A DNA stretch of 64,000 nucleotides, from NCBI GenBank assembly GCA_033439765.1, contig JAULSN010000004.1, forward strand, positions 4,784,001-4,848,000. Reading direction: 5' to 3'. A program made the translations under genes and the position numbers. Source of the stretch: Lasiosphaeria ovina (Eukaryota > Ascomycota > Sordariomycetes > Sordariales > Lasiosphaeriaceae). Positions 1 through 29,644 of the stretch are shown here, piece by piece. The stretch's first letter is position 1; each line of letters opens with the position of its first letter. The notes under the pieces were generated by a model. That model was given only the letters and a program-made list of their open reading frames with translations. It made no database searches and was not told where the DNA came from.

Positions 1-2843
1 CAACCGAAATCGGGTTCCTATAACCACCTTTCGTAAAAGCCCATCGATGGATCAAGGAAGAGCAAGGAACAAAGAGAGCAGGAAGGCCACAAAGGCTAGA
101 GAAGCCCAGGAATCTATCGCTTCAATCTACACGACGATCACTTGAACGCGGCTTCAAGGCGGTTGTAGCGGGCTACATTGGAATTTAAGATTTTACAGTA
201 CAGAAGCGGGTCAAAGCGATATTAATTGCCAACACTTAGTCGGGCCCCACAGGTGGGTGCGAATATGAGTTGGGTAGGTGCGTAGATGAATGCTCGAATA
301 CAAAGAGAAGCGGAATACTCCCTAGAGTCCACAGAGCACCTTCTATCACCGTGACGAATAGCACTCCGTTATGTCCGTGGCTAGTCTACAGGATCCCCGT
401 CACCGTTGACGATGGGGGCCTAAGCCCTAGCGGAGGTTTCAAGCAACGCTGGGACGACGGTAAGGTGCTAGGCGGGAAAGAAATTTCGGAGGACATACGA
501 AGGAGCGTCAACATCTCTCTTAACCTGTAATTTTTGGGAAGCAAGGCCGACAGCTTCGCCAAACTTTACTTCTGGGCTCCTTTTGTGCTGGTGGGACACG
601 GCGAGTTTGCCGTGCTGGGAGATTCTGCGCAAACTTTGCAACGGCGCTGGAGTTGCAAGAGGCGACCAACACGGCGGGTATTATGCGGGAGTCAGTGAGG
701 CGAACTTCTCGCGTGGTTCGAATAGTTCCATTGTTTCTGCGGTCATTGCGACGCTGTACCCTAATTAAGGTAGTTACGATGGGAGGAGCATGCAAGTCTA
801 AATCTTCATAGGTCCGCTAAAAGGATGGTAATTAGGGCGCGCAGCGTGACCAGGTCTAGCTCGAGGCTCTAGCAAAATACAAAGTCGCTAGGCAGGTGCC
901 TTGCAGCCTTTCGAGCACAAAGACTGTAGAGGATTCCTGCGTCTTAATCTTTACTAGGTACAGAATAAGATAGGAGGTTTATTCTTTTTCGAGACACGAG
1001 ACTAAAGTAAGTACCTAGGTACTTTCCGCAGGTCCGGCAGCAAAACAGCAGTTTGTTTGCCAGCGGCGAGCCACCTAAATTTTAATTCTAGCGTTTCGTC
1101 AAAGATACACGGACGAAAACACCCAAGCTGGCCTGCAGCCGGTTTCCGTTCCACCAGACCGGCAAACACACGAGAATCGGGTGGTTGGCCAGCGGCGACC
1201 CCGGGCGGTGAGGAAGCTCGGCGATTGGCGTGATGAGAGCGCCGAATAGGAAGGTGTGATGCCAAGGTATCACGGTACGGTCTGACTGAACATCAGCACC
1301 GCAACAGCTTGTGCAGCGCAGCAGCAGGAGTCGTCCGTCGGTCATCACGCAATGCGATGGAATCCACCAAAACCGCACTTTCAGGCTGGGGTTTGGCCAA
1401 TCCTCGGTTTTGCGGACCATTAATTACCTTCCTCCGAACCCTTGGGTTGCGCGGTTTATTTTCAGGGCACGCCTTGACAAAGCCCAGATTCCATCCTATT
1501 AATATTCCTGGCCAACTGACGATCATTCAGCTCCTTCTCGTGCTCTTCCCCGCAAATCAATCCTCCATACCCCACAGGCCATGTATTTTCTGGGGAATAG
1601 CGGTAGCGTGCATCTACCTATCTACCTAGATTCTCATGGCTGCGGGATGCGCCTTGGCTGGTCTCAACTCTAAATGCCAGTCTCCCGCATATCGAGGCTT
1701 CTCCACGAAAACGTGACTGAAGCCACAAAGTCAAGAGGGGGATATTGAGTTTACGACACTGGGTAACACTATCACACGTGTAATTTACTAGGTAGCAAGT
1801 ACGAGCACAAGCGCAGGCTGACTCTAAGCTGCGCTCGCGCTCTTTCCTTGGCGACACCAGGCTTGGAGTTGGGACCTGCCTGCCCTTGGGCGACCAAGAG
1901 AATTACCCGATGAAGGGAAAACAAGACGGCTGCTTGATTGGCGCGCCCAGCTGATGGCCGTCCCGGTCCCTCTTCTCCTCTTCTTGGCACGGGCAATTAA
2001 GCAAACGCCAAGCCGCCTGGCAAGCCACAATGGCGTTGCTCTGCATGCTCTTGGCTGCCAGCCCAGACGTTCGATCCAGGATCTGTCACTGGCAGAGGCC
2101 AAGACCCAACCCCACATGTCATCACTGTCAGCCATGCTGCTCTGATCTTTCCTTTCCTGATCGTCCAGATTTTTTCCACAACGGAGCAAGAGCGGTGGAG
2201 GGTGCCGTGGCAGTTGCAGATGAACCCGAGGCAGTCAGGGAAATGCCGCTCTGCATCAGCCAGCAATGGCCAAAAGCTTGTCCCCGCACGCCCAACGCCC
2301 CTCGCTCCTCTTTCCGTCTGGTCTGGTCCACTGGTCACACTGCAGCTCGTTCTGGAGTCGCATCATCGCATGCACATCACCTGCTAAATTGCCCGCCCGG
2401 GAGGGCTACACAAGAAGCTCCAGAGTGGGAGTACAGCCAGCGGGTGGTAGATGAAATCATGACCGCTTATCTACGGCTACCCAGAAGGGGTAGTGATTCG
2501 CCAATCCCCATCCAAGACATGCGGGCTGTTAATTAATCTGGGATCGTCTAGCGGTGTGTGTATGCTTTCTCGCTTCTCCTCCCAACTCTTGCTTGCAGGA
2601 CTTGCCCTTGAACAATAAGTTAGGTCCACCTCTCTGAGTTTGTTCTGTCCTGCGCCGACCACGCTGCAACTGCAAGTGCACCCACCGCACCGTGACCTCA
2701 CCTCGGGTGGCCCCTCGTCCAGTCTCCACCGGCTATCCCGCAGGCGGATCCCTTACATCAACCACCTACCCGAGGAGCTTCCAGCTGGAGAGGGCCGGCA
2801 GAGGCAAAACGCACGCGCACACCTAAAACAACACCGGCCAACC
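1..2843. other. Intergenic stretch, no gene recognised
   Basis: I see only short, overlapping reading frames on both strands with no recognisable protein motif, no convincing intron chain and no RNA gene. The last few hundred bases presumably contain the promoter and 5' leader of the transporter that starts at 2844. The reading frame of that gene stays open back to about 2640, but the residues there look like untranslated leader rather than protein. Confidence 0.6.
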
Positions 2844-4652
2844 ATGGAGCCGACAAACGAGCCGGCCGACCCCGTGGCCAAGGGCGTGCTGGCGACGGCG
2901 CGGCAGTCGTGGAAGGACCTGTTCGTCTGGAAGCAGCGCATCGTGGTGACTAACGCGTACGGCGAGACGACGGCCGAGTGGGCGCGGCCGGCGGCGCTGC
3001 GCAACCCCATCAGCCTGCTGGCGCAGCTGTCGGGCCGCGACTGGCTCTTCTTCCTCGTCGGCTTCGCGGCCTGGACGGCCGACGCTTTTGATTTTCACGC
3101 CCTGTCCATCCAGCAGGTCAAGCTGGCCGCCTACTACAACATCAGCAAGACGGACGTGTCGACCGCCATCACCCTAACCCTGCTGCTGCGCTCCATCGGC
3201 GCTGCTGCGTTCGGCCTCGCCGGCGACCGCTGGGGCCGCAAGTGGCCCATGGTCTTCAATATGATCATCCTCGGCGTGCTGCAGATCGCCACCATCTACA
3301 GCAGTACTTTCCAGCAGTTCCTCGCCGTGCGCGCCCTGTTTGGTCTGTTCATGGGCGGAGTGTAAGTTTTCAGTCCGCGCTTGCCTTGCTACTGTTGCCG
3401 TGGCGCTGTTCTTTCATTCCAGCTTTTCTTGGTTCCTATTTTTTTTACTAAACAAGCATGTGATTCTGCGTTTAATTTAGTTACGGCAACGCCATCGCCA
3501 TGGCGCTCGAGAACAGCCCCGTCGACGCCCGGGGCCTAATGTCGGGCATCCTGCAGCAGGGCTACTCGTTCGGCTACGTCTGCGCGGCGTGCGCCAACCT
3601 CGGCGTGGGCGGCAGCGACGACAGCTGGAAGACCGTCTTTTGGATCGCGGCCGGCCTGTCGATCGGCGTCGGCATTATTCGCTGCTTCTTCCCCGAGTCG
3701 CAGCAGTTCATCGAGGCCAAGAAGGCCGGCAAGGCCCAGGGCCACGCGTCAGAGTTCTGGCGCGAGACCAGGATCATGATGCGCCAGGAGTGGAAGATGT
3801 GCATCTACTGTGTCATCCTCATGACTTGGTTCAACTGTGGGTGTTGCCCCTGAACGTTTTCATTCCTTTTTGCCCCTTTTCCATGTCCTGGCTCCATCTG
3901 GACCGGTAGCTGACTAGGCCTGTTTGCACCCGCATGCAGACTACAGCCACACTTCCCAGGACAGCTACACGACCTTCATGCTCACCGAAAAGGAGCTCGA
4001 TAACTCGGGCGCCAGCCGCGCCAGCATCCTCATGAAGGTCGGGGCGTGCGTGGGCGGCACCATAATCGGCTATCTCTCACAGTGGTTCGGCCGGCGGCGG
4101 TCGATTGTCGTCGCGGCGCTCGTCAGCGGCTTCCTGATCCCGGCGTGGATCCTGCCGCAGGGCGAGCGGTCGCTGTCGGTGACGGGCTTCTTCATGCAGT
4201 TCTTCGTGCAGGGCGCCTGGGGCGTCATCCCCATCCACCTCAACGAGCTGTCGCCGCCGGCGTTCCGCTCGTCGTTCCCGGGCCTCACGTACCAGCTGGG
4301 CAACATGATCTCGTCGCCCTCGGCCCAGATCGTCAACGCCATCTCTGAGAGCCACTTTGTCACCAGCGCGTCGGGCCACCGTGTCGACGCCTACGGCTCC
4401 ACCATGGGCATCGCCACCGCTATCATCGCCATCGGCATCGCCGTCACCACCGCCTTCGGTCCCGAGAAGCGCGGCCGCGAGTTTGAAAAGACGAAGCCCG
4501 CGGGCATGAACCTCGTCCAGGAGGGCAAGCGGCTCGATGACCTGGAAGCCGCCCCCACGCCCTCTGCTGGCCGCCGCGGCAGCAGCGAGCAAAAGTCACA
4601 GGTCCAGCAGCTCGAGGCCTCGAGCGATAACCTACCAGGCTCGGAGAAGTGA
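2844..4652 (+). CDS. JEN1: JEN1-like carboxylic acid/H+ symporter (MFS)
   Basis: Predicted plasma-membrane proton symporter of the major facilitator superfamily that imports monocarboxylates such as lactate or pyruvate. Three exons, 2844-3361, 3481-3836 and 3940-4652, give 528 residues, close to fungal Jen1 proteins. The introns (119 and 103 nt) have GTAAGT/TTTAG and GTGGGT/GCAG ends and TACTAAC- or CTGAC-like branch points. Joining exons 2 and 3 creates NYYSHTSQDSYTT, an exact fit to the JEN-family signature NXX(S/T)HX(S/T)QDXXXT, which lines the substrate path. Exon 1 has the MFS loop motif GDRWGRKW between TM2 and TM3; a hydrophilic tail rich in Gln/Ser/Glu follows the last TM. The start is the Met after a CAACC context; upstream in-frame residues look non-coding. 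In yeasts this family is glucose-repressed; no such site was identified here. Confidence 0.9.
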
Positions 4653-7519: not shown

Positions 7520-10389
7520 TTATATCCCGAGCATCTCAAGCTTGCCAATTTTCCTCTGCTTGGCGTATATTGCCGCAAGATTTCCAAGGCTCTCCATTCT
7601 CCTGGTATCCTCCTCTCCATAAATCCTCTTAGACGTCTCGTATGCCTCCTCCAGGAGTTGCTCGGCTTTCTCCCATGCATTGGCGGCTTCATACCCAATC
7701 GCGAGGTTTGTCATGCTCAGCAGAGTATCGGGATGCCCATTTCCCAACGTTTTCCTGCTCTGGTCCAATACGTCCTCCTCAAGAGAGATGGCCTCGTTTG
7801 GGCGGCCCAGGTCTCTGTACACCAAAGCCAAGTTCGCAACACTCGTCAAAGTATCCGGATGTTCCGCTCCCAACACTTGCCTTCTCCCTTCAATGGTTTT
7901 CAAGCCTAGCTCTTCTGCCTCCAGGAGTTTGTTTTGATGCCAATATGTCAGAGCGAGGTTTGACATGTTCTTCAGTGTTGCGGGATGCATACCCCCTAGA
8001 ACAGCTCGACTCCTCTGCAGCACGAGGCTCTGGATATCCTCGGCTGAGTTGAACTGTCCGCTTTCTTGGTAGACCAAGCCAAGATTCGACATGGCAATGA
8101 AGGTATCCAGATGGTGTGATCCACGGACTCTATTTCGCATCTCTACTACCTCCTTGCCAAGGGTCTCTGCTTCCTCAAGTCTCCCTTGCCTCAAGAAGAT
8201 GGTGGCCAAGTTGGCCATACTAGTTAATGTGTCTAAATGGTCGGCACCCAGATGCTTGCTTCGCGTGCTTCGCAGCTCGTGCTCCAGCTTCTCGGCCTCC
8301 TCAAACTGTCCAAGTTGGAATAGGATGACGGCCAGATTCTGTTTTGCGTCAAGAGTCATGACATGCTCTAACCCCAGAGTTCTCGACATGATCGAGACCA
8401 CTCCTCGCTGGACAGTGAGTGCGTTGTGAAAGTTCCCCTTTTCGAGCCAGATCCCGGCTAGGTTTGACATGCAAGCCACGGTATTGGGGTGGTCTTCGCC
8501 AAAAGCCATTTCGTTCAGCCTGAAAACAGATACCTGGATGGCTTCTGCTTCGTCGAATTTGCCTTGCCGCCGAAGGAACGCCAACAGCTGGAAGACAATT
8601 TTGAACCGGCAAACTGGGTCGTTTAAGCTCTTTGTCATGTCGTCAAGCTCGCGCCTCAGGGTATGCTCCAACTGACGGAACAGCTGAATATCTCCCTCCA
8701 CGTCGACAGTGCTGAGGTTTCCCATATGCCCCTGGTTGTAAATTTGCTGGACCAGCTCGGGGAGATGAGTGCTTGGGCTTGTGCGACTCTTGAGTGACTG
8801 GATCGCTGCACGGACGAGAGCGATATCAGATTCGCTGGAACAGAGCCCCAACATTTTTTGCTCATCCCTTGGCTTGCCGAATCCCATGTAGTAGCATAAA
8901 CATAGCTGGATTCGGTCGTTTGATAGCTCCGAATTTCCATTCTCTCGAAGAACTCGCCGCTCCAGGCATTCGAAGATGCTAAATCTAACCCGAGGGTCCA
9001 GGTCATACAGTTGGCCAAGATTGTTGGCAAGCTTGCGAGTCCGCCTTGTTAAAACACCAATGGCTGAAATGAAGATGAAGGCTCTGCTTGACGTACCTCG
9101 AACCTGTTCGTACCATGCAGTTGGGTAATGGCATTGACATAGTCCGACTTGATGGCCACTTGCCCAAGGTCTTTGCGGTATCTGCTTTTAGTAAGCATTT
9201 AAATTGATGGTAATATGAAAGAATTGAAGAGAAGGACGTACGATTGCAGAATTTCAAATGTGCACAGCGACTCCATCCGCTGATCCGGGTCAAATATTAA
9301 CGCTGATCGGAAAAACTCTAGAAGAGTTTCCGCATGGCCAGAAGCGCCGAGTTCCTCTGTTAACAGCTGGGGCACGGCATCGATTAACAAGTCCGTCTGT
9401 TTTAAGCGTCCAAGAGCCCGGATTGAGTGCGGCACTTGTTGGCCGCCGCCCTTTGAAGTCGGCCGCAGGTTCTCCTCGGCTAGATAAGCGCCTGCCTTGC
9501 TGGACAAGTCCTTCTCGAAAAGAATCCAAAAGCATAACAAGGCATAGGAAAAGATGTCTGCTCGCTTTGCCTCGGCAAATGAAAAGTTTCGACTCAAGCG
9601 ATCTCCCTCCGGGGCGTGCCACGGTCGTGATCTCGGCAGACGAATCCTGTCGGTGTCGTCGCGGAACCAGGACGAATAGCCGAAGTCGGTAACCTTGGTG
9701 ACATATCTGCCATCGAGTTTAAATACGAGGACATTTTGAGGCTTAATATCCCCATGTATAATATCTTTTCAGCACTGTTAACGGGCGTCTGCTATAACTG
9801 AAGAGGGTAGAGGGAATAACTTTCACTTACCTTGATCGTGCATCTCCGCAATGGCACTACCGATCTGAAGACACAGGTCCAGCCGCTCCATGGCAGCCAA
9901 CTCGCGCCAAACAAGAAGGGTAGAGAAGTTATAGAGGTCGCTGTACTGTGATTTTTCGAAGAGGAGAGCTGGCCAGACCCCACCCGTTGATGGATTATCC
10001 CAACAGATGCCCAGGAGATCAACGATATGAGGATGTGCACGCAAGTTGGGGCGGCTCAGAGCAATGAGCTCGTTGGCGAAAATACGAAGAACTAACTCAA
10101 CCTCTCGCTGTGCCTTATCCTCGTCTTTGACTAGTTTGAATGCTAGGCTGGTCTGTACATCGACCAGCGCCTGTCTAACATCGCCGCTTCCCCCAAGGCC
10201 CAGTCGCTCGCGGGCTGCCTGCCATGTCATGGGGAGAAGTGGTACACCGAGGTCGCATGCGATGGCGAGAAAGCTGATCAGGTCTATGGCCTCTTGATGG
10301 CCGAGGCTTGAGTCAACGCTGATGTGGTAGAGCAGATACGGCGTTGACGAGGGGGAAACATCGTCCTCGACTTCGTTCCCTGAATCCAT
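7520..10389 (-). CDS. Protein kinase with C-terminal kinesin-light-chain-type TPR array
   Basis: Four exons (10389-9831, 9764-9242, 9181-9097, 9031-7520) joined in frame give 892 residues. The N-terminal half is a protein kinase: a Lys in LAFKLV (about K85), catalytic loop HGDIKPQN (Asp about 192) and DFG (about 213), then an RPWHAPE activation-segment end. HRD is replaced by HGD, as in many fungal signalling kinases; essential Lys/Asp/Asn/DFG residues are present, so activity is plausible. From about residue 500 to the end are roughly eight 42-residue TPRs of the kinesin-light-chain type (LGxxHPxTLxSxxNLAxxY). Such TPR arrays are common as sensor parts of fungal NLR-like proteins. It is a paralogue of the gene at 15529-18898, sharing the N-terminal motif LGVPLLPxxW. 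The last acceptor was chosen because it alone restores the frame. Confidence 0.85.
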
Positions 10390-11470
10390 GCCGACTGGTT
10401 TGCCTCCCGGGAAATGACTGATTTAAATTTGACGCGAAGTTTCAGATGATTGAATGGTGAAATGACCAGAACGGTAGGACAATTGGTTGTTGTCGGATTG
10501 TATGTGCTTATAGCATCAATTGTCTGTCTGCTTTGTCGTCTTGTCTGTTGTTAGGTTGGTGCAAGCTAGCGCTGGAAATTCTGCATGCTCAGTGGCTCGG
10601 ACCGGGATAACGCTAATCCGATAGTTGTCGGTGCTATTGAGCACCGACATGGCGGTGAGGCTATTTTCCGGGCACTCCAGGAAGAGACGATGCACGTTAC
10701 ACCGAAATATTGTTCTCGGGGTGGCAAAGTACTTTGTACCTGGTCAGTACTTTTGCCAGTTTTTGCGGTGAAGGTACATAAGTGTACCCCGTCGAGGAGA
10801 CCTGTCAGCATCCGCTGGTAATGCAGTGGAACTAGTAATCACCTGAAAACCCATGCAAGACCGAATTGCGTTCTCCAATTCACAATTGAACGCAATATAT
10901 CATATACCCAGGTTATCTGCTGCTACGGCAATGTAATAAAGAACAGGGTCTAGCGCGTAAAAATCGGGGATATAAATAGCTAGGCGTACAAACTGCTGGG
11001 GTTATTTTGGCTTTTAAACGTAGATTTAAGGTCTGATATTGAACTTAGACCAGTTTAGCAGCATGTTCATTCCTTTATTCTAATTGGTTTAAATTTCATA
11101 TAAGTGGAGAATATATACCAGCGTCCGTGCGTAGCTCCTTGGCGCCACAACTGGTCTGAGGCCGCTGAGATAACTTTAGGGTGGTAACTTACATCTACCA
11201 ACTGGCCAGTCAATTGCTAGAACTCGTTGCCGATCTACACCAGCAACCGGGGCACTAATTTTCATCTGCCTACACTAATTAAGTCCCTGTTAGTACCTAG
11301 GACCTGGAGAGCTCCGGGAGGACTTGCCGGACAGGCATGTGGCATCCTCAACACGTCTCTTACTCAGGCGGTTCAAGCGGTTGGCTAATTAAGGGACTGA
11401 GCCACAGGCGGAAACTCCTACACAACACCGTCGTTCCAAATAACGTCGTCTCCTCCTTTGCTAGTTCGCC
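10390..11470. other. Intergenic, divergent promoter region
   Basis: This stretch separates the start of the minus-strand kinase-TPR gene from a small plus-strand gene. A TATAAATA box is visible at about 10970 but is not clearly tied to either gene. No other feature was recognised. Confidence 0.5.
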
Positions 11471-11703
11471 ATGGCAGAGATTACCAAACTGAAAGCTCTG
11501 TACGTCAAGATGGACAAGCTGACAAGCTTGCTACAAACCACGTTTGAAATGGGCAGCTTCAATATCGCCGTAGGTTGTCTAGCTCAGACCCCCATGAGCG
11601 TTTTAACCTTAACATACCGGTCCAGATTGGCGAAGACACTATCGAGGTCTCAGCGCCCCGACTGCTCACCGAGGTCTGGTCCCCCAACAATGTCATAAAT
11701 TAA
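11471..11703 (+). CDS. Small spliced protein of 58 residues
   Basis: Exons 11471-11569 and 11626-11703 are joined across a 56-nt intron (GTAGGT ... CCAG, with CTTAAC-like branch site). The join keeps the frame and reads MAEITKLKALYVKMDKL..., a short amphipathic N-terminal helix, followed by GEDTIEVSAPRLLTE and a stop. The codons look protein-like on both sides of the intron, which is the main evidence that it is real. No family was recognised. It lies about 580 bp upstream of the tandem-kinase gene on the same strand and could be a partner of it or simply a short orphan. The unspliced frame would run to 11698 with poorer sequence. Confidence 0.45.
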
Positions 11704-12283
11704 CTCCTTGTACTAATGAGTCTATCTTGGCCCAGTCGGAACAATCCAGTGTGCTGTGGCGACAGTAGAAAAGGCCGTGCCTAGGTGACAAATTATTGGG
11801 GAGAAACCGATGCTGTGAGACTGTGTCGAGGCTCCTACGGACAAGCGCACGTACCAGGCTTATTAGGCGGTTTCCATCCTATATGGTCGCAGGACAATAA
11901 CATGCAGTTCGTTGTTGTGTCTTGGGTCAGAAGACAAAAAAAGAAAGCTACCTACCTATTTTATGTGCCCTTCGCATCTTAAAGGGAATAGAAACTTCTC
12001 TGGCGTACATATCCAGTGCGATTGAACGATGTCGACGTGAAAGGGTTGACGACGGTCCGCCGCAAGTGGTCCGCCGCATGTGGTCCGCCATTTCCACCAG
12101 GCAGCCAGCGGCGCCTGGACGCCTGCCGGGAAAATCGCGCACGCACGCCAGCTGCGGGGTCTCAACTTTGAGATTTGCTCGCAACGCACAACCCGGCAGA
12201 ATGGACATTAGAGCTGGCTAATCCAGACCTCTCCAGACCATTCCGCCCCGGCCGCGATCGGCGCCGCAGCCACCGCATCTTCG
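11704..12283. other. Intergenic upstream of tandem-kinase gene
   Basis: No gene was recognised. At about 12053-12090 the 14-bp unit GTGGTCCGCCGCA(A/T) is repeated almost three times in tandem, about 200 bp before the start codon of the next gene; it could be regulatory or part of the leader. Confidence 0.45.
12053..12090 (+). repeat. Short tandem repeat, GGTCCGCCGCA unit
   Basis: Three successive imperfect copies of GTGGTCCGCCGCA are visible, the first lacking its first bases and the last ending in CCATT. It lies in the promoter-proximal region of the tandem-kinase gene. Confidence 0.7.
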
Positions 12284-15200
12284 ATGATGGCATCCCGACC
12301 GGGCCTGGCGAGAGCCACACTTGACTCCGTCTGGATTCAAATACAGAATAACCGCGTCAGCACCACAGATGACCGTATTAGCTTTGTTCCGCCCGCGAGC
12401 CTCTCGACTATCTTTACGCCGAGCGCGATCGCCGCTTGTGTCGCCGAACTATCGTGCGCCGCAGAAGACCGTCTCGGCCTCGCCAACGCCATCCGTCGGG
12501 GAGGCATCCCAACCTTTGCCGTGCTCGTATGGATTTCGAAGCCTGACCTGGTCGTCCTGTTCCGGAGGAAGCAATGTCTTGATAGGCTGCCTCTCGACGA
12601 CAAGACGGCAGAGGATGCTGCGGGCGAATACGCGCCAACGTTCCTGGAGAGGCAATGGGAGTTCCTGCCGTACCACTTCCAACCAGGCCAAGACGTTGAG
12701 ATTAAGCCCAAAGTTATACTACCTTTTATTCGAGATCTGGGCCCCCTAACACCGGGGTCCTTTGGGAATATTCAGTTATTAGAGATCCACCCGTCGTTGC
12801 AGGACTTTGTTCAGCGAGCTGTGAGTCTCCCTCTGTCATCCGTCGCCTTGCTTTCCCTTCCGCTTGGTCTCGCGTCTACCCACCCGAGGTACAGCGGTAA
12901 AGGCCTACGGCTGATCTTCATGTGTAGGGCGAGCAGGTAATCGTCGTCCGAAAAACTCTCCGCCCAGACGCCTATATCTCACCTGAATCCCAACTAACCG
13001 CCTTCATCAACGAAAAGCGCTGCCTTCGCTTGATCAACCACCCACCTCATCCCAACATCGTCCCACTCCTAACCGCCTATACCCACAGCAATAACTACTA
13101 TCTACTTTTCCCGCGCCTGGATATGGATCTACGGTCCTTCCTGTCGCGCCCCGAGCCGTTTGGCGAGTTCAGTCAGCGCTTTACCTTCTTCTCGGCGTTA
13201 CACGGTCTTGCTGCGGCCCTCGAGCGCGCCCACGTCATTCGCGTGAGCGATGACGGCCAAGACTTCGATGGGTTTGGCTACCACCACGATTTGCGGCCCG
13301 CCAACGTGCTGGTCAGCCGTGAGACGTTCCTGCTTGCCGACTTTGGCATGGGCAAAGCGCGCGAGGGCCAGGATCTATCAACCACGCGCTTCAAGGCGTG
13401 GACCAGCGACTACATCGCACCTGAAAGCATGGATGAGAACTCTAATCCACTGGATATCGGGCGGCCTGCAGATGTCTGGGCTTTCGGATGTCTTGTGTGC
13501 GAGGTTATGGTCTATGCGTATCTGGGTGTAGAACGGCTTAGTGCGTTTCGAGTGGAGAGGAATGTGCTTAGGTCGCCGTTAAGCTTCCAAACAGACCCAA
13601 TGTTTTATGACGGAGGTGGAAATCTCAAGATGGTGGTGAAAGAGTGGGTTGATCTTATCGCGACCACGGAGCGACGGCCATCTCTGGGAGAGGCGCTTCG
13701 CGATCTCGTGCGTTCGATACTTACACCGCTCGACACACGGCCCAAGATCGCCCGTGTTCGACTTAGCCTCGCTCATTTGAGCCTCAAAGCTCACTTCTTT
13801 GCCGTCCTTGAATCGTTTGACAAAGTTATAGATTTAGATGGTGGCGTGCTCCGTCCGGGGTCATCCATGAAACTGTGGTTCGAGCGCGAGCGTCTGCACG
13901 CCTTTGGCAGTGTTCTCTGCCTCCTTTCTTCCGCAGCCGATGAGGCCTCCACCAACTTCGCGGGTTGTTTCGGAAGCGAATGCGTCAATACCCTGCTAGA
14001 ACTTTTTCGCATGTTTCCTCAGGAGCCAAAGTCGAGGGTTGAGAGCGAGACGCCGCAATCTCAGCCGCCGGACGGGCTGCAGCAGCTGCAAAGATCACAA
14101 AGCTGCGAGACCTTGACCGTTGCTGCCACTGATGCGCCCAACGAACGGATCCAACTCGACGCCGATGCCCGCCTGCTCACCCAAAAGCTCTGGGACCTAT
14201 TGCCGGAAGTCGCTTCTCGAAGGGCCGAACGGGCTTGGATTAAATTGATGCTCGATAAAACCGATAGTGTCGGCGATCTGGACCGCATTGAAAGCACACT
14301 TGCGAGCCAGCGGCCAATCTCATATCAACAAGGCGCTGCTCTGGCGATGATGAAGAAGATCCGCCTCGAGATACAGAACACTACCAGTAGCAGGGAAGAG
14401 CCAACCAATGTCGAAATACCCGACGATAGGATTCCGATCCCGGATGCCAAACCCACATACCGACATGAGATGGGCATCGATAAGGACGAAAAGCCCGTTC
14501 TTATCGAAAGCATATTCTACGACGAGAGTTGGGAAAATATCCCGCCTAAGGAGCGAACGCTAGTTATGTCGTACAAGGCGATGGGGCTTAACCCCAGGCC
14601 TCAACTGCCTGGTCTCTGCCTGCTAGAGTGCCTTGGATTCTTCGAGACGGGGCGCGATAGTGGTCGGAAGGGCTTCTCGTTTGTGTATCAGGTCCCTGGA
14701 TCGACAACATCGCTAGATGCCACAGCGGCCCCAGGCACGAGCCAGTGCGGCCTCATGACTCTCAACCGGCTACTGGTAGCCTCAGCAAAGCAGCCCAGAG
14801 AGAACCAGCATACCAGCCAGCCCTCCCTAGAGGACAAATTCCAACTCGCCAGCGCCCTTGCCACCTTCCTCGCCTCGTTCCACAGCACGGGCTGGTTGCA
14901 CGAGAACCTGCACTCCAACAACATCGTTTTTTTCGGCACGCCGCCAGGCCTAGACGAGAAAGGCATTTCGGCCCCGACAAGCTCCCTCCTGCGCGCCCCG
15001 TTCGTAGTGGGCCTCAACAGAAGCCGGCCGGGCGGCGACGCTTGGCACACGCAGGGTTTGACCGGGCACGACCGCGCCTTCGGCGACTACCGCCACCCGG
15101 CCTATGAAGCCACGGGCCACTTCCGCGCAACTTATGACTACTACACCCTCGGCACCGTGCTACTTGAGATTGGGCTCTGGTCGCGGCTGACTTCTATCGC

Positions 15201-15450
15201 GGGACGCGACGAAAACCGCAGGCTCACGCCAAAGCAACTACAGGAACAGCTCCTGGCGCGCTACGTCCCACGTCTGGGGCCTCGGATGGGCAAGACGTAT
15301 CGGGATGTGGTGGAGGTGCTACTTTCCGATCGGCTTGATCCTGAGCCGGACCAGGAGATGCCCAATGCAGCGCGTGAGGGCCAGGCATATTCAGCGTTCT
15401 TGGAGCTGGTTGTTGAACCGCTTGAGCGTTTGGCGAGTGGAATGGTATAG
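12284..15450 (+). CDS. Tandem kinase-pseudokinase protein
   Basis: Two exons (12284-12820, 12928-15450; 107-nt intron, GTGAGT/TGTAG) encode 1,019 residues. The first kinase domain has a degenerate glycine loop (GSFGNI), a Lys in VVRKTL (about 188), catalytic loop HHDLRPANVLV (Asp about 300), DFG (about 317) and an APES activation-segment end, so catalysis is possible. A helical, low-complexity linker follows (about 440-690). The C-terminal third matches the kinase-like module often found behind HeLo domains in fungal prion/allorecognition proteins: FHSTGWLHENLHSNNIVFF, then DYRHPAYEATG and LEIGLW. There the catalytic Asp is Asn (HEN) and no DFG is evident, so it should be a pseudokinase. The residues before the first kinase are not recognised as HeLo. 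The gene converges on the kinase-TPR gene to its right with only 78 bp between stop codons. Confidence 0.85.
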
Positions 15451-15528
15451 CGCTTGGCTTGGAGCATGAAAATTTCCATTAAAGATGCCTGATGTTTTCT
15501 GATCTGCCTAGTTAATACCTGGACAATT

Positions 15529-18500
15529 TTATGGAGAGGCTGGCTGATGGGCTATTGACTGCTCCAGGTCATGGCCTCCCTCGCCACTGTCACCATCGTC
15601 TAGAGTAGAAGGATCAAACTCCAGTTCGGACTTCCCTGTATCCACTAAAAATTTGACGACCGCCGCTTCAAGTCTTTGGACTACAGAATCAATCATGTAC
15701 TCGCCTGCTCGTTCGATAACAAGTCGTGCCGCAGCGAGGGCTTGCTCCGCCTCAACCAGCCACGCATTGCGGCCGCACACCGTGGCCAAGACAGTGAAAT
15801 GGTGAACCACGGCTACGGGGGCGTCTTGCCACGGCCGTTGCAGTGTCGTTAGAGCAAGAAGCAGGTACTGGCGCATCGCAGAGCGCTGCCCTAACTCCGC
15901 ATAGCAGACAGTTGTGAGAACCATGTCCTTCAGGTGAGACGACGCAACTTCAGTGCCACTTTCGCCGTCCTCCCGTCGGATGAGGTCGAGGAGTCGGTTC
16001 CAGAATCCCACCGCTTCCTCGTGTGCCCGCGAAAGTGTCAGACAGCGTCCAATTTCCGAGAGCAGCGTGATTCTGGTTTTGCTGCGAGTGTCGGCGAAGC
16101 CGTCCCGGATCTCGAGACTCTGTTTCCAAAGACTGGCCGCCTCCGCCCATTGCCAGCGGCACATCAGGGTAAGAGCCAAACCATCTAAAGTTGCGAGGGT
16201 TAGGTAATGTTTATCTCCCAAAGTCTTGCGACGAAAATCTAGGACTTGTCTCTGTAGGCACTCGGCTTCCGTCCATCTTTGCTGTTTGCGATATGTGGTG
16301 GCGAGGTTGTCTCTAACCCCTGCAACGTCTTCGTTTTCTGCACCCAGAAGCTTCTCCGCCTCTTTGCAGAGGTGCTCCATGATTGTTCTAGCTTCTTCAG
16401 ACATGTTGTGGTCGTTCAATATCGCAGCGTACCTGCCGACAGCCCTGATGGCCGGTAAAGCGTTTTCAATGTTGTCGGCAATGAGACTCTGAATCCTTGC
16501 GTAGCATCTCTTTGCATCGCTGAGTCTGTCAAGTCTGTAGTACTGTAATGCAATGATGGCGAGTTGCGCGATCAAGACTCCATCATCAGCCTTGTAGCAT
16601 TTCTCAATGGTGCCCAAAAGCCTCTCATGCATCCAAACCGCCGTTTCCAACCGCCCTTCGGCGTCAAGGGCATCCACCACGACTCTGGATGCCGATATTC
16701 TGGTTGGATGATATGGCCCCAGAGATAACACGGCATCTTTCTCCGTCGTGAGGGAGAGCTCCAGCGCTTGGCTGCTATCCCCCTTCTCAAGAAGAAGATT
16801 AGCAAGCATTGCCTGGTCATACCAATAACTTGGGCTGTCCTTGTGTTCTCCCCACTGCCTTATAACGTCCCTCAGTATAGCCTCGGCTTCCTCAAATCGA
16901 GACATCCGCCTGTATATGAAGCTTAGTTGTGACTTCAACGACAGACGGTCACGGAGCCCAATATCCGAGCCTGCGTTATTGATATTCTCAACCGTAGTCG
17001 CCAGTGCTTCTTGGAAGGAATGAGTATAGCATAAGAGGCCGACCAGAAGCATTTTGGCGCGAATTGTAGTGTAGTGTGTGGGTCCAAACACTCTCTCCCG
17101 ATTATGTACCATCGCTCTGTGCTTCGAGGTCGCCTGTGCAAGCATACCCTGCCTTCTATAGCGGTCGAGGAGACTTTCCCGGTAGCCCCTCTTGAACAGA
17201 TCTACCACAAATCCGGCGACTTTTGTACCGGTGTCGACACGTATCTGATCTAGGGTGTTTTGAAGGCTGTGTAACTCTCTGCCGCTCTTTTGGAGCCAGA
17301 AATCACGCTCCTTATTGTCGAGAGCAACGCCAAATCCCATCGAATGGCAGACGGCAAGCTGAAGGGCAGCATTGTTTTGGCAGACACTGCAGCCTTCACC
17401 TTCGGCCATAGTGCGCAAGGCATGGGCAATGTGTTCGGAGATTCGAAAGTCAAGCATTTCCAGGTAGAAGAAGGTATTCGAGGTCTTTGCTTTTGATGTC
17501 AGCTCCATGGTAATCTCGACTGACTGAAATCGAACAACCAACCAGAAAAGTGCCATGCCATTGAGGCGGGGCCACCCGACGGAGAGGTTCCGAAACATTC
17601 GTAGAGCTAGTTCTCGCTGTGAGAAACCACCTTGGATGTGAAGATAATTCGATCTGTTTCTTGATCGAATACTGTGTGATTTTATCTCACCTCATGCCTG
17701 CCTCGTCCTCCTGACCTGAAACCGCCAAGATTGGTATTAGATCGTCGAGAGTTTGAGCTCGTTGCTCGGGATCAGAGCACAGCGTTAGGTTGAATAGACG
17801 TCGAAGTCGGCTGCCATACTCGTCGTCGATGCCAATGGCATTGCTTACAAGTCCCAGCGCGCAAGATAACATCGAATTATCGGCCCGCTTCTTCAAGGAT
17901 TGTACTTTCGCCGTAACGGCCGCATCCTTGGAGAGAAAAGCCTCGTCCAGGGTCACCAAGGGCACACCGAGCACAACCAATTTCTCGTGCCTAAACAGGA
18001 TCCAGAGGCAGAGCAGACCAAAACTGTAAATGTCCATTGCCTTGGCGTCCGCGATGGAAAAGTGTCGGGAATGCCACTCCGGAGCCTCCCACGGCTGTGT
18101 CCTCGCGACTTTTAAGTCGCTGTTTTGGGCAGCTTGGAAGCACGAGAATCCGAAGTCAGTGACTTTGACTTGTATGTTGTCTGTGTCCTTGACGTCTTCA
18201 ACCAAGATGTTTGTTGGCTTGAGATCTCCATGGATGACTCCTGGTAGTAGACTGTCAGAACGTCCACTCTGCGCAGGCATAATTATTGCCAACCGAGGCC
18301 GATAGGCTCGCTCAGAGGAGAGGGGGACAGTACCACAGTGATGCATTACTTGAATACCACTTGCAATTTCTTTGCAGATTGCAACAAGCGACTCCACGTG
18401 GAGCGGGGTGCGGGTTGATAGAAATGTGTAAAGATCCCCCAGGTCGGCCTTAGTGGAGACGAGAACGGGCCAGACTTCGTCCGACACAGGCGACATCTCG

Positions 18501-18898
18501 AAGCCGGCTCCGACAAAAGTCACAATATTTGGATGCCGACGGATGGTCCGATGGCTCAAGACGGTCATTTCGGCAATCGCAGCATCGTATTGCATCTGCC
18601 TGAACTCCCCTTCGGACACGTCGTTCCTCGTCGTGTGCGGTTTGAAACGTTTAAAAGCAAACGTGAACTCGGCATTGAGGGTAGACTGGTTAATGTGCGC
18701 TGTTGACCCTTCGCGGCCGACTGATTCGAGGGCCGGATCCCAGGCAAGCGGCAGGAGAGGGACTCCAAGGACTTGCGCAACCTGGAGAAAGCGGATGAGG
18801 TTCTGGTGGCAGTCTGCCTCATCTGCTGCTTCACGATCCGATGAAGAAGCCGGGACCGAAGTCTCGGAGAAATGACCAGATGAGTGGAAGAGATCCAT
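15529..18898 (-). CDS. Second kinase-TPR protein, paralogue of the gene at 7520-10389
   Basis: Exon 1 (18898 to about 17689) encodes a kinase with AFKRF (Lys about 83), HGDLKPTN (Asp about 225), DFGFS (about 248) and QPWEAPEWHSRHFS, closely parallel to the other kinase-TPR gene (LGVPLLPLAW, DIYSFGLLCLWILF). Exon 2 (from about 17640 to 15529) encodes about 690 residues of degenerate TPR helices (e.g. NLATTYRKQQRWTEAECLQRQVLDFRRKTLG). The junction is uncertain. GTGAGA to AAACAG keeps the frame but makes only a 37-nt intron; a GTCAGG donor with a CCAAG acceptor also keeps frame and makes about 80 nt. Both predict the segment GGFSQRELALRMF after the join. Two separate genes are possible but less likely, given the same architecture in the paralogue. 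Expected length is about 1,090 residues. Confidence 0.8.
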
Positions 18899-19283
18899 GG
18901 TATATCATCTACGTACTGGTTGCCTTCGGCACCCGTTGTGCTGGCTGCTGTGCTGTCAAGAGTTGGGCCTACGGCCGTCACCGAGATAACCCCCACCCTA
19001 GTATTGACGCACGGGCCAGGACTGCCACCACGTGCGCAATGAGGCAACGAGACCGCGTCTCATTCTTGCGCACCTTTGACATCACATCCACATGATGTTA
19101 GGCTGAAATTTTTAGGCATCCACTCGGTCACAATTCGCGCAGCGCAGGATGCCCGAAGCTCAGCCACATCCGCGGCCTCAACCGGCTGATCGACGCAACT
19201 ATTAATGCAGTTCTGGCTTCTTCTTGTCTTGCTACAAAACTTGGAGAGATGTGGTATAACGTTATGCTGTGAATGCTATCAGC
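18899..19283. promoter_or_regulatory. Divergent intergenic region between kinase-TPR and CorA-like genes
   Basis: The two genes start in opposite directions from this 385-bp interval, so it must carry both promoters if both are expressed. No obvious TATA box or repeated operator-like motif was seen. Confidence 0.5.
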
Positions 19284-21298
19284 ATGTCTGACGACCCGCA
19301 CGTGTACCCGCTTGATTTGCCCCGGGGCCAGATCGACCCAGATGATTTGCACTGGTACTCGGAGGAGCTCAATCATCGGGCCCCGCAGCTATTCGCCGAG
19401 AACGAGACGATTTGTCAAGTTGACTTGCATCAGCACTCACCATCACGGCCAAAGGCGACTCCTACTCCTGGAGATCCAAAGGAGCCGGCAACTGCAAGTC
19501 AAGAATTGAGTGGCGGGCCTTGTCAGAAGCCTCGCCCTGGATCGGACGAGGAGGTGAAGTTGTCTAAACAGACATCTCTATCCACAGCCGAGAGCTTAAG
19601 GTCGACTTTGGAGGTAAATAATGATTTTCCACTGACATCGAGGTGTCATGGCCAACAACTAGAGTCTAGGCAGAGCAGCTCCCAGGGAGCACAAGGCTTT
19701 TGTAGGTGCTCTGCCACCAACTTCTCCTTCTGTCGGCCCACTGACACGAGCAAAACTATAGCACTATATATAGGGCCAACTCATGGAGCCGCATGAAGAT
19801 TACCGCCGATATGTTCCGAGCATTATGCACAAGTCTAAAGACGTTTCCACGAATGCTCGATTTACTCCGTGGCATGCAGTACAAATCCGCCCCCAGCGAC
19901 GAGCACTTTATGAGCTGCTATAATCGCATCCACGGGCTTGCGGGAGATCCATCTGGTGGAGACACACAACCAACGCCGAAAACAGAACTCTCATTTCGTA
20001 GGTGTCGCAACGCTCGAGATTTACCCGTGAAGAGCTCCTGACTGACGACAACCAGAGGTGTGCTACAACTTACGCCATTTTGAGAGGCATGGCCGAGACC
20101 TCAAGGATCCGTGGTCATGCCGCCAGACCGTCATTTATCAGAGACACGAAGTATCCGCCGCAAAATCGTCCTGGATAGTTGTCCAGCCATCCGCGAGGTG
20201 GCAAGCTTCCCTTGATGATGTTGCGACAGGCAACGCCACCCACCCTCTCTTCCTGCACATTCGGAGCCTATCCTCAGCGATAGCAAACAACTGGGAGTAT
20301 CTGGAGTACCTGAGCAGCCTTGTCCTATCTTATGTGAGCAGACTGCGCCGAAACACACCTCAGTCTTCCTTTCTGGCGAAGTCGAAATTTGCTGCTGACA
20401 ATAAGGTTGGCAATCTATATCAGGATCAAGATGCAGCCTTTCCCAAGGCGCCTGACAAGTTTGATTTCGATTTCACCCTGCACCAGAAGGTTCAGTCAGT
20501 TCGCAAAAGGTTAATCCACGTCAAGACTATCTTACAAGGGACTCTGCGCACCGTCCTCTCTATCTCTTCACTCGCTAGAGCAATTCGGAACCTCGGCTGC
20601 GTTTCAGGTGTTGAAGATGATGCCTTCAATCGAGAGATGGAGCATATCATGAGAGATCTTGAAGCATACAAGTCGACATCTGACGAACTACTCAGTCTCT
20701 CGGCTGATATCAGATCTACGGTGAGGCTACCAGACTCAGCTTAGTACGCTGAGCTATTTACTACCTTCCTAGCTAACCACCTAGAAACTTTTCAAGATAA
20801 GTTCAGTACTCAACTTCCGCAACCAAGACCTAGCGAACGGTAACAGCGTGCAGATCCATCGCATTGCCGAGGACAATGCGCGGGAGACGCAGATCATGAA
20901 CGACATCGCGAAGCAGACGTACAAGGACTCTCGAGCCGTGCGCATCGCCACGGTCATTGCTCTCATATACCTACCCGCCAATCTCGTTACTGTACGTCCG
21001 CCCATGACTGCTGCGCCATGTTGACTGCGTCCGCCCAATACTGATTTGCGCTTACTTGTGCACCTGTTGGCAGGGTCTTTTTAGCACTGTCTTCGTCTCC
21101 ATGAGGGCTCCGAGTGGCAGTACGGATGGATCAACCGGGAAGTTGGGATCCGACGCGGTAAGCGACATGCAACTGGTGGTTTACGACGAAATATGGGTCG
21201 CCTTCGTTGCCATCTGCGTCTTGATTCTTAGCACTGGCGGTTGGTATTGGCTTTGGGATCGTCGGTCGCAAGCTGGTACTAAGGCATCGAGATGCTGA
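19284..21298 (+). CDS. CorA-like two-TM membrane protein
   Basis: Five exons (19284-19613, 19751-19997, 20056-20720, 20785-20991, 21074-21298) keep one frame and give 557 residues. The soluble N-terminal part matches a large fungal family annotated as CorA-like transporters: LFAENETICQVDL, NSWSRMKITADMFRAL, FQVCYNLR, SCRQTVIYQRHEV followed by SSWIVVQPS. The last exons hold a helical stalk and two predicted TM segments (VRIATVIALIYLPANLVTGLF and IWVAFVAICVLILSTGGWYWL). The pore GMN motif of true CorA Mg2+ channels is absent; YLPANLV stands at that place, as usual in this fungal branch. Ion transport is therefore unproven. The first intron uses a GAG acceptor and is the least certain. It is divergent from the kinase-TPR gene and may be part of the same accessory cluster. 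Confidence 0.8.
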
Positions 21299-28314: not shown

Positions 28315-29644
28315 TTAAGCGATAAGATCGGCGACGTTCATGGGCATCTCATCAATCTGCGTCGAATAGTACACTGCAATAACTGTTAGGGGTATTTAAA
28401 CTGCTGTGGCGAGGAATCGACTTACGCTCGATATCACGCAGAATGCGCACATCCTCGCTAGTAACGAAGTTGATCGCAACACCCTTGCGTCCAAATCTGC
28501 CGGACCGACCGATACGATGGATGTAATTCTCACGGTTGCTGGGAAGGTCGTAGTTGATGACCAAGCTGACTTGCTGAACATCAATACCGCGGGCCCAGAC
28601 GTCGGTGGAAATCAGAACTCTGCTGTTGCCCTGTCTGAAGTCCTGCATGATGCTGTCTCGCTCCTTTTGCGGCATGTCTCCGTGCATGCTGCTGACGGTA
28701 AAGTTCGCTTCTCTCATCTTGTCCGTAAGCCAGTCAACCTTTCGCCGCGTGTTGCAGAAGATGACGGCCTGGGTGATGGTCAGAGTGTCGTAAAGATCGC
28801 ACAGGGTATCAAATTTCCAGTCTTCCTTCTCGACAGCAATGAAGTACTGCTTCAGGCCTTCCAGAGTCAACTCGTCACGCTTGACGAGAATGCGTACGGG
28901 GTCGGTCATGAACTTGGTGGTCATGTCGAGGACATCGTAAGGAAGAGTGGCCGAAACAACGACGACCTGCGTGGCGGGCGGAAGATAGCGGTACACGTCG
29001 TAGATTTGCTCCCTGAATCCTTGGTTGAGGAGTTCATCAGCCTCGTCGAGCACTAGCATCTTGATGTGACGCGTGCGAAGATGGCGGCGCCGGATCATGT
29101 CGGCGACACGGCCTGGGGTGCCGGAGACGATATGTTGGCCGTAGTCCAGCTTGCGAATGTCTTCTCCCACGTTTGTGCCGCCAATGCAGGCGTGGCATTG
29201 AACGTTCATGTAGTCGCCGAGGGCCATGACAACGCTTTGGATCTGGGTTGCGAGTTCGCGCGTCGGAGATAGGACAAGCGCCTGCGTCTCGCGGACTGCG
29301 GTGTCGATAACTTGGAGCATGCTGATTGAGAAAGTCGCGGTTTTGCCGGTACCCGATTGCGCCTGGGCGATGGTGTCGCGTCCCTTGCAGATCTGGACAA
29401 TGGCTCGGGACTGCACGGCAGATGGTGACTCGTAGCCATATGCGTAGATGCCACGGAGAAGGCTTTCTGTTCAGGCGCTGGTCAGCACACCGGTTGAGCG
29501 GCGGTCGCATCTGCAGGAGCGCAGCCTCCTCTACTCACCCTTCAACGACATCGACTCGAAAGTTGGATGCACCGTGACCTCCTTGGAGGTTGAGAATTGG
29601 ATTTTCTCATCCGCCTTGCGGTCGATTCCCCCAGCCTCAGTCAT
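28315..29644 (-). CDS. FAL1: ATP-dependent RNA helicase FAL1 / eIF4A-III
   Basis: Three exons (29644-29539, 29466-28426, 28373-28315; introns of 72 and 52 nt with GTGAGT/ACAG and GTAAGT/GCAG) encode 401 residues, the usual length. All DEAD-box motifs are visible: AQSGTGKT (motif I), PTRELA (Ia), GTPGR (Ib), LDEADELL (II), SAT (III), FCNTRRKVD (IV), [15 protein letters not shown] and [13 protein letters not shown] (V-VI). The C-terminus, [21 protein letters not shown], is formed only after the last intron is removed and is diagnostic for the eIF4A3/FAL1 group. In fungi this protein is linked to 18S rRNA maturation and, as eIF4A3, to the exon-junction complex. Its start lies 368 bp from the divergent SF3a60 gene. 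Confidence 0.96.

What the first reader, a model, noticed from the sequence alone, without database searches (positions are those of the whole stretch)
7520..21298. Accessory cluster: two kinase-TPR paralogues, a kinase-pseudokinase, a micro-gene and a CorA-like membrane protein
Seen: five genes in about 14 kb, with two minus-strand paralogues of unusual kinase + kinesin-light-chain TPR architecture flanking a plus-strand protein with two kinase-like domains, and a divergently placed two-TM CorA-like protein. Known: TPR arrays, HeLo-associated kinase-like modules and CorA-like proteins recur among fungal NLR-type/allorecognition gene sets. Inference: these genes may work together as a recognition-signalling system in which a TPR sensor drives a kinase instead of an NTPase.
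Basis: partly seen in the sequence, partly recalled or inferred. Interest (0 to 1): 0.75.

Follow-up and report, generated by a model that had tools for sequence, protein, structure and literature searches.

The report
Fungal kinase-based cell-death-like gene cassette
In a fungus, sensor-like kinases, a kinase joined to a cell-death-type module, and a channel-like membrane protein keep turning up as neighbours, which suggests an unstudied fungal alarm system built on kinases where known ones use NOD-like receptors.

Summary
The cluster is real and not a chance grouping. The genome is Lasiosphaeria ovina. Four of the five genes hold up: two kinase-TPR proteins (A, B), one long protein (C) and a CorA-fold protein (E). 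The "micro-gene" has no support. C is more than two kinases: it reads N-terminal helical domain, active-type kinase, divergent HeLo-like bundle, DUF7580 pseudokinase, so it looks like an active kinase fused to an MLKL-like executioner. The same trio (repeat-bearing kinase + C + E) recurs at three other, anciently diverged loci of this genome. Simpler pairs, an A-like kinase beside a HeLo/DUF7580 gene, occur at about seven more loci. Best reading: a NOD-less recognition and cell-death relay in which a repeat-sensing kinase signals to a HeLo-pseudokinase, with the CorA-like protein as membrane partner. Linkage and architecture are shown; immunity, death, phosphorylation and ion flux are inferred.

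The parts
7520..10389 (-). Gene A: kinase-TPR protein, 892 aa; exons 10389-9831, 9764-9242, 9181-9097, 9031-7520; kinase about residues 61-350 (HGDIKPQN, DFG, APE kept), six 42-aa TPR units at residues 612-863 within a longer TPR region
11471..11703 (+).
12284..15450 (+). Gene C: N-terminal helical domain + kinase + HeLo-like bundle + DUF7580 pseudokinase, 1019 aa; exons 12284-12820, 12928-15450
12674..13728 (+). Gene C, active-type kinase domain (about residues 131-446; HHD and DFG invariant, APE invariant or nearly so in 34 aligned relatives), spans the intron
13747..14376 (+). Gene C, HeLo-like helical bundle (about residues 453-662)
14461..15324 (+). Gene C, DUF7580 pseudokinase (about residues 691-978; GWLHEN in place of HRD, no DFG)
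15529..18898 (-). Gene B: kinase-TPR protein, 1094 aa; exons 18898-17716, 17630-15529; HGDLKPTN, DFG, APE kept; degenerate TPR array
18899..19283 (.). 385-bp shared upstream region of the head-to-head pair B / E
19284..21298 (+). Gene E: CorA-fold two-TM membrane protein, 530 aa; exons 19284-19613, 19670-19701, 19762-19997, 20056-20333, 20424-20720, 20797-20991, 21074-21298; YLPANLV at the end of TM1

Best explanation
A, B, C and E form a conserved functional unit: a NOD-less sensor-to-effector system. A and B are sensors in which a TPR array is joined directly to a kinase. A signal caught by the TPRs activates the kinase. It acts on C, an active-type kinase built onto a HeLo-like bundle plus pseudokinase (the layout of the necroptosis executioner MLKL, behind a kinase in the same chain). 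The HeLo-like bundle then oligomerises or moves to the membrane, where E, a CorA-fold protein without the GMN motif, serves as membrane anchor, pore or gate, leading to ion flux and probably local cell death. Shown: the domains, intact catalytic motifs, recurrent linkage, CorA fold (of a relative), HeLo-like relation. Inferred: sensing by TPRs, direction of phosphorylation, oligomerisation, membrane action, death.
For: Linkage in one genome: the four best loci for C are the four that also hold E relatives and repeat-bearing kinases (K1 window; K2 C1:8.869-8.879 Mb; K3 C12:1.607-1.617 Mb; K4 C32:2.420-2.429 Mb). No two layouts are identical and one 160-bp blastn match is all the DNA similarity found, so this is not recent copying. 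Of the 12 best-scoring A-like kinase loci 9 lie within 6 kb and 11 within 10 kb of a pseudokinase/HeLo locus, against 2 and 3 of 109 other kinase loci. Other species: C and E relatives share a contig in 3 of 3 other species present in both lists; in Emericellopsis one gene model runs from the CorA-like part into the N-lobe of a B-like kinase. Distances of linked C and E correlate, Mantel r=0.97, P=0.01. HeLo-like middle of C: hhalign E=2.7e-7 over 177 columns, reversed control 0.13, 30 shuffles score at most 15.2 against 53.0. Fold of E: 50 of 50 listed PDB rows are CorA (43 by title, 7 T. maritima mutants that I know as CorA). Parallel: 6 loci with an A-like kinase beside a DUF7580-type gene on the opposite strand, 5 of them with a Pfam HeLo hit. 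Passages in print: fungal necroptosis-like pathways are often 2-3-gene clusters and some HELL domains are joined to kinase/pseudokinase (PMC12881547); a CorA-domain gene is a vegetative incompatibility candidate in Morchella (PMC8940278, one section read).
Against: No experiment, expression or population data. The HeLo-like part of C is internal, so the free N-terminal helix of known HeLo/MLKL pores is not available. HeLo Pfam hits are sub-threshold (7 of 34 relatives, best E 0.015; none in C itself); C's own middle reaches only E=0.022 against the HeLo profile. TPR units in A are only 35% alike, without the high internal similarity that I recall for fast-evolving fungal NLR repeats. The K2 copy looks reduced: its C relative lacks the N-terminal kinase and its E relative has an in-frame stop in the alignment. 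Most species in the E list have no C hit and 7 of 11 named species in the C list have no E hit; the lists are incomplete, but E often may live without C. Of all 25 A-like loci, only 13 are within 10 kb of a pseudokinase/HeLo locus. The Mantel result leans on the distant K3 and K4. Kinase-pseudokinase and CorA-fold proteins also serve ordinary signalling.
Confidence: 0.55

Rival explanations
1. A conserved but non-immune signalling unit: repeat-regulated kinases and C control a CorA-like channel or transporter (divalent ion, osmotic or wall stress), with HeLo-like and pseudokinase parts as scaffold.
For: The relative of E has the CorA fold; the HeLo-like part is internal, not a free N-terminal pore helix; no death activity was tested.
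Against: E lacks the GMN motif (motif recalled); multi-copy, rearranged loci with a reduced copy are unlike a housekeeping pathway; the sister pairs carry N-terminal HeLo, a domain known for cell death (PMC12881547 passages).
Confidence: 0.25
2. A selfish killer-antidote or purely allorecognition element: kinases and C kill, E (or one kinase paralogue) protects, and the locus persists by drive or balancing selection.
For: Compact linked set and head-to-head B/E; a CorA-domain gene is one of two vegetative incompatibility candidates in Morchella.
Against: No population or cross data; linked conservation over three classes is long for a driver.
Confidence: 0.12
3. Chance neighbours or leftovers of segmental duplication in an accessory-rich genome.
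For: The four loci are in one genome and related, so some linkage is inherited; K2 and K3 share the order kinase - E(-) - C(+); L. ovina is rich in immune-type genes (162 NLRs, PMC12258605 passage).
Against: No two layouts are identical, DNA similarity is nearly gone, and other species keep the linkage.
Confidence: 0.05

Closest known systems
Fungal HeLo/HELL necroptosis-like clusters (HET-S/NWD2, HELLP/PNT1)
   Same: Small gene cluster pairing a repeat-bearing sensor with a HeLo-type effector (PMC12881547 passages)
   Different: Here the sensor has a kinase and no NACHT/NB-ARC match; the HeLo-like part is internal in C and tied to a kinase and a pseudokinase; a CorA-fold protein is added; amyloid motifs were not tested
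RIPK3-MLKL necroptosis pair
   Same: Active-type kinase and a helical-bundle + pseudokinase protein; in C both in one chain, in the sister pairs as two neighbouring genes. Closest solved folds for C's kinase are IRAK4 and JAK kinases
   Different: RHIM not tested; TPR or ankyrin arrays on the sensor kinase; CorA-like partner; kinship of these kinases with RIPK3 not tested
Fungal NLRs with TPR or ankyrin repeats
   Same: C-terminal superstructure-forming repeats and several copies per genome
   Different: No NOD module in A or B; in Sordariales only 12 NLRs carry PKinase (PMC12258605 passage)
Plant tandem kinase proteins and plant MLKLs (recalled)
   Same: Kinase-pseudokinase in one chain; HeLo-type bundle with a kinase-like domain
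   Different: Order, HeLo-like part between the two, TPR kinases and CorA partner; not compared by any search
CorA / Mrs2 / ZntB channels
   Same: Cytoplasmic alpha/beta domain, long stalk helix, two C-terminal TM helices
   Different: Conserved YLPANLV-type stretch instead of GMN; no PF01544 match for E in the held Pfam at E<=1 (first E model); relatives mostly carry PF26616

Membership tests
NLR (STAND receptor) | NACHT or NB-ARC nucleotide-binding domain | tested here: not met
   No such family among Pfam matches of A or B at E<=1
NLR (STAND receptor) | C-terminal superstructure-forming repeats | tested here: met
   TPR_12 E=4.2e-81 (A), 4.9e-18 (B)
MLKL-like executioner | HeLo/4HB-type helical bundle | tested here: met
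   Family profile of C's middle vs HeLo profile: hhalign E=2.7e-7, probability 93%, controls negative; 10 of 34 middles at E<=1e-3, C's own 0.022; weak Pfam HeLo in 7 of 34 relatives. Divergent; this part alone was not compared with solved structures
MLKL-like executioner | Pseudokinase directly after the bundle | tested here: met
   DUF7580 in 34 of 34 relatives at E<=10, in C E=1.6e-6; hhalign to HeLo-DUF7580 proteins E=1e-44; HRD/DFG lost
MLKL-like executioner | Bundle at the N-terminus with a free first helix | tested here: not met
   Bundle lies at residues 452-661 of P0020, behind a kinase
MLKL-like executioner | Membrane permeabilisation / cell death | not testable with these tools
   Needs expression
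Fungal necroptosis-like gene cluster | Sensor and effector genes linked in the genome | tested here: met
Fungal necroptosis-like gene cluster | Shared amyloid (HRAM/PP/RHIM) motif | not tested
   No motif profile was run
CorA channel | CorA fold with two C-terminal TM helices | tested here: met
   AF2 of relative P0060 (54% identical to E over 98% of the searched part; pLDDT 77.5); Foldseek: 50 of 50 listed rows CorA, TM-score by target about 0.5-0.6
CorA channel | GMN motif after TM1 (recalled) | tested here: not met
   YLPANLV or near variants at that place in the alignment
Active protein kinase (A, B, C kinase 1) | HxDxxxxN, DFG, APE motifs | tested here: met

The most novel reading that the evidence does not exclude
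Ascomycete fungi have a class of NOD-less immune-type receptors in which TPR or ankyrin arrays switch a kinase directly. These kinases drive MLKL-like HeLo-pseudokinase effectors, as separate neighbours or fused to a further kinase. In the fused form the HeLo-like part can no longer offer a free N-terminal pore helix, and a CorA-fold protein supplies the membrane channel. This would be a kinase-to-pseudokinase necroptosis logic in fungi with a new type of executioner channel.
Probability: 0.35. Interest if true: 0.9.

Novelty: new variant of a known kind. Interest (0 to 1): 0.74.

Why it matters
The fungal cell-death systems in the reviews that I saw passages of are built around NOD-like receptors, proteases and amyloid relays. 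A recurrent, deeply conserved cassette that joins repeat-bearing kinases to an MLKL-like module would give a direct, testable parallel to RIPK3-MLKL necroptosis in fungi, a place to ask whether phosphorylation-triggered executioners are ancient or convergent, and a possible function for a CorA-fold family (PF26616) that is named by resemblance.

Tried and rejected
First model of E had wrong introns; replaced after seeing P0059. P0059 itself seems to stop inside the last intron. My first stitching of genome loci reversed some loci and mismatched; one search replaces it and is the one used.

Early idea that C had lost HeLo and that E replaced it: dropped after searches showed a divergent HeLo-like middle. 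The weaker form (an internal HeLo-like part needs a membrane partner) is kept as inference.

Micro-gene as part of the system: rejected for lack of relatives. Shared coding matches between the window's intergenic stretches and K2-K4: none at E<=0.01.

A 13-locus kinase list was partly chosen for being near pseudokinases, so its 12 of 13 is circular. I report instead the 12 best-scoring loci in rank order. Of all 25 A-like loci 11 are within 6 kb and 13 within 10 kb; 8 of the other loci overlap PF00069 hits and look like ordinary kinases. The 109 control loci come from a capped list (122 of 346 candidates scored).

C29:2.448-2.467 Mb was examined as a possible fifth C-type cluster because a PF01544 gene lies at 2460276. 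tblastn showed a kinase/pseudokinase pair and one more pseudokinase, no E match. It is counted as a seventh, less certain, sister pair. C2:128.5-131.5 kb has a kinase beside a DUF7580-type gene, but that kinase is not among the A-like hits; not counted.

Structure search of C returned kinases in the 50 listed rows, and the second look aligned about 130-468, so the HeLo-like, pseudokinase and N-terminal parts were barely tested by structure; nothing is concluded from absences. N-terminal domain of C (12-125): only one chance-level Pfam hit; unexplained. In some searches one of 34 E-family controls also reached E<=1e-3 (9.7e-4) against the HeLo profile, so single hits near 1e-3 are not evidence. 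Rfam and tRNA scans of the window found nothing.

Paper searches for prior description showed no report of this cassette in their listings; 'DUF7580' 0 papers, CorA + HeLo + cell death + fungal genomes 0 papers. The library lacks most subscription papers and all bioRxiv preprints. Papers opened: PMC12881547 (outline and passages), PMC10197012, PMC12258605, PMC9815663, PMC12720139 (passages), PMC8940278 (passages and one section).
Full report
WHERE IT IS. The window lies in a 51.7-Mb genome in 32 contigs. A protein in the database that matches gene C at 100% is from Lasiosphaeria ovina, on a contig of 5,987,086 bases, the length of the window's own contig C27. L. ovina belongs to Sordariales, Lasiosphaeriaceae.

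THE GENES. I built spliced models by eye and checked E and C against relatives. A and B are kinase-TPR proteins with intact HGDxKPxN, DFG and APE motifs. No NACHT or NB-ARC match was found at E<=1. A has six 42-residue units in register, on average 35% alike. C has an active-type kinase (HHDLRPAN, DFG, APE; invariant or nearly so in the 34-row alignment) and a DUF7580 pseudokinase with GWLHEN in place of HRD and no DFG. The model of P0060, a relative of E, has two TM helices, a long stalk helix and an alpha/beta domain (pLDDT 77.5). Of 50 listed PDB matches, 43 are titled CorA and 7 are T. maritima mutants that I know as CorA. At the end of TM1 the family keeps YLPANLV or close to it, not the GMN of CorA (recalled).

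C HAS A HELO-LIKE MIDDLE. The AF2 model of C (P0020, 34-row alignment, pLDDT 83.7, pTM 0.80) shows an N-terminal helical domain (12-125), kinase (about 130-445), a helical bundle (452-661, with a disordered loop 547-580), and the pseudokinase (about 690-977). Pfam HeLo hits 7 of 34 relatives weakly, best E 0.015, and not C itself. In one search, 5 of the 10 proteins scanned show it, all in this middle and in the right order: profile 30-118 near its start (one protein), about 159-204 near its end (four). With a HeLo profile made from this genome's own HeLo genes, 10 of 34 middles reach E<=1e-3 (best 2.5e-7; C's own 0.022), no reversed middle does (best 0.012), and 1 of 34 E-family controls does (9.7e-4). 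Profile against profile: E=2.7e-7, probability 93%, 177 columns covering nearly the whole HeLo profile; reversed 0.13, N-terminal domain 0.19, kinase 0.66; 30 column shuffles scored at most 15.2 (best E 0.2) against 53.0. I take the middle as a divergent HeLo-like domain. C then has the layout kinase - HeLo-like - pseudokinase, that is, an MLKL-like module behind an active-type kinase.

THE SET RECURS IN THIS GENOME. Searches with A's kinase part, C and E and local tblastn give: K1 window A(-) C(+) B(-) E(+); K2 C1:8.869-8.879 Mb kinase-TPR(-) kinase-TPR(+) E(-) C(+); K3 C12:1.607-1.617 Mb kinase-TPR(-) E(-) C(+); K4 C32:2.420-2.429 Mb E(+) kinase(-) C(+), where the kinase is followed by ankyrin repeats. 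No two layouts are the same, though K2 and K3 share the order kinase - E(-) - C(+). E relatives were found at 5 loci in all; 4 of the 5 are these clusters. By contrast 1 of 14 PF01544 CorA loci is within 10 kb of a pseudokinase/HeLo locus. Protein identities between clusters are 43% (C) and 50% (E) for K1-K2 and 21-27% for pairs with K3 or K4; blastn of the first 28 kb of the window against the nine other loci gave one 160-bp match. So the sets are old and partly reshuffled while keeping their members. K2 seems reduced: its C relative matches only from about residue 442-455 onward and its E relative shows an in-frame stop in the alignment.

A SIMPLER SISTER ARRANGEMENT. At six further loci (C1:1.958-1.963, C1:2.000-2.007, C12:2.060-2.067, C28:3.788-3.793, C23:0.512-0.517, C23:1.280-1.286 Mb) an A-like kinase gene lies beside a gene with the C-type pseudokinase, on opposite strands in 6 of 6. 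In the frames scanned, Pfam HeLo is at the front of the latter in 5 of 6 (at C23:1.285 only the end of the profile; at C1:2.000 no hit in the 219 aa scanned), DUF7580 is matched at E<=0.006 in 4 of 6, and ankyrin repeats follow the kinase in 5 of 6 (weak, E 0.003, at C23:0.512; none found at C1:2.000). C29:2.448-2.452 Mb is a seventh, seen by tblastn only. No E relative was found at these loci. In rank order, 9 of the 12 best A-like kinase loci are within 6 kb of a pseudokinase/HeLo locus and 11 of 12 within 10 kb; other kinase loci 2 of 109 and 3 of 109 (Fisher P about 1e-9 and 3e-12; with K1 and K2 counted once each, 9 of 10, P about 2e-10). Over all 25 A-like loci it is 11 and 13. The space within 6 kb of such genes is 1.2% of the genome. 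The clusters are related to one another, so these P values overstate independence.

OTHER SPECIES. No other fungal genome could be browsed, so I used the contig lengths listed with protein hits that stand for a single contig. Four named species appear in both the C list (39 hits) and the E list (42 hits): L. ovina itself (5,987,086) and three others, Emericellopsis cladophorae (267,324), Phialophora macrospora (5,161,063) and Lojkania enalia (132,470). In 3 of 3 others the two lengths are equal, so I infer the same contig. A and C share 2,545,696 in Purpureocillium lavendulum, the only species in both those lists. Two species are in both the A and the E list: Whalleya microplaca shares 272,487, Nemania sp. 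NC0429 does not (145,554 and 732,761). Seven of the 11 named species in the C list have no E hit, and most species in the E list have no C hit; the searches are word-based and incomplete, so this tells little, but it does not support an obligate trio. The small contigs carry the weight: against a 30-Mb genome (my assumption) chance sharing would be about 0.4-0.9% for Lojkania, Emericellopsis and Whalleya, but 8-17% for Purpureocillium and Phialophora. The gene model P0065 of Emericellopsis runs from a CorA-like part into the N-lobe of a B-like kinase, which puts those genes side by side whether or not the fusion is real. The species with C and E span Sordariomycetes, Dothideomycetes and Eurotiomycetes. 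For seven linked C-E pairs, distances correlate with r=0.97, P=0.01 over all 5040 permutations, mainly because K3 and K4 are far out in both.

HOW IT MOST LIKELY WORKS. Shown: linkage, domains, intact catalytic motifs, CorA fold of a relative, HeLo-like relation. Inferred: TPRs (or ankyrins in the sister pairs) sense a ligand; the attached kinase is switched on; it acts on the HeLo-pseudokinase partner, as RIPK3 does on MLKL; the bundle is released to act at a membrane. In C the HeLo-like part is not at the N-terminus, so the known pore mechanism by an expelled N-terminal helix is not available as such. E is present at K1-K4, where the bundle is internal, and no E relative was found at the sister loci, where HeLo is N-terminal. 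I therefore propose that E is the membrane partner. That E is an inhibitor or target instead is not excluded.

WHAT IS KNOWN. In passages of a 2025 review (PMC12881547; [quoted passage not shown] That covers part of the sister arrangement in general terms. In the listings and passages that I saw there is no description of repeat-bearing kinases paired with HeLo-pseudokinases, of the C fusion, or of the CorA-like member. A CorA-domain gene is one of two vegetative incompatibility candidates mapped in Morchella importuna (PMC8940278, one section read); whether it belongs to this E family was not tested. L. ovina has the most NLRs (162) of 82 Sordariales genomes, and only 12 NLRs in that study carry PKinase (PMC12258605, passages seen).

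VERDICT. A new variant of the known fungal cell-death gene clusters, with a kinase in the place of the NOD module.

Noticed in passing
C1:1.958-1.963, C1:2.000-2.007, C12:2.060-2.067, C28:3.788-3.793, C23:0.512-0.517, C23:1.280-1.286 Mb of the same genome (L035/L017, L036/L054, L034/L055, L056, L057/L022, L058/L031): Opposite-strand pairs of an A-like kinase gene (mostly with ankyrin repeats) and a HeLo/DUF7580 gene: a two-gene RIPK3/MLKL-like arrangement.
   Followed up: partly
C29:2446501-2469500 (L068-L070): Kinase/pseudokinase pair, a PF01544 CorA gene about 8 kb away and a second pseudokinase; possible larger cluster.
   Followed up: partly
C2:126501-133500 (L071): A DUF7580-type gene beside a kinase that is not among the A-like hits.
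   Followed up: partly
C1:8876100-8879430 (L039, L043, L027): K2 copy seems reduced: C relative without the N-terminal kinase, E relative with an in-frame stop in the alignment.
   Followed up: partly
window 12320-12661: N-terminal helical domain of C (residues about 13-126), confident in the AF2 model but without a Pfam family.
   Followed up: no
window 19284-21298 versus P0059: The deposited L. ovina protein for gene E appears to end inside the last intron, so its second TM helix is missing; and no L. ovina protein for gene A was among the 19 hits.
   Followed up: partly
window 10400-12250: AT-richer stretch between A and C (GC 0.49) with mixed RIP indices: TpA/ApT 0.99, (CpA+TpG)/(ApC+GpT) 1.10; the first exceeds and the second misses the cut-offs that I recall. 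Inconclusive.
   Followed up: partly
window 2619-4652 and 28352-31615: Flanking genes read by eye (no family search) as an MFS transporter on the left and a DEAD-box helicase plus a splicing factor on the right, so the accessory block may sit between ordinary genes.
   Followed up: no
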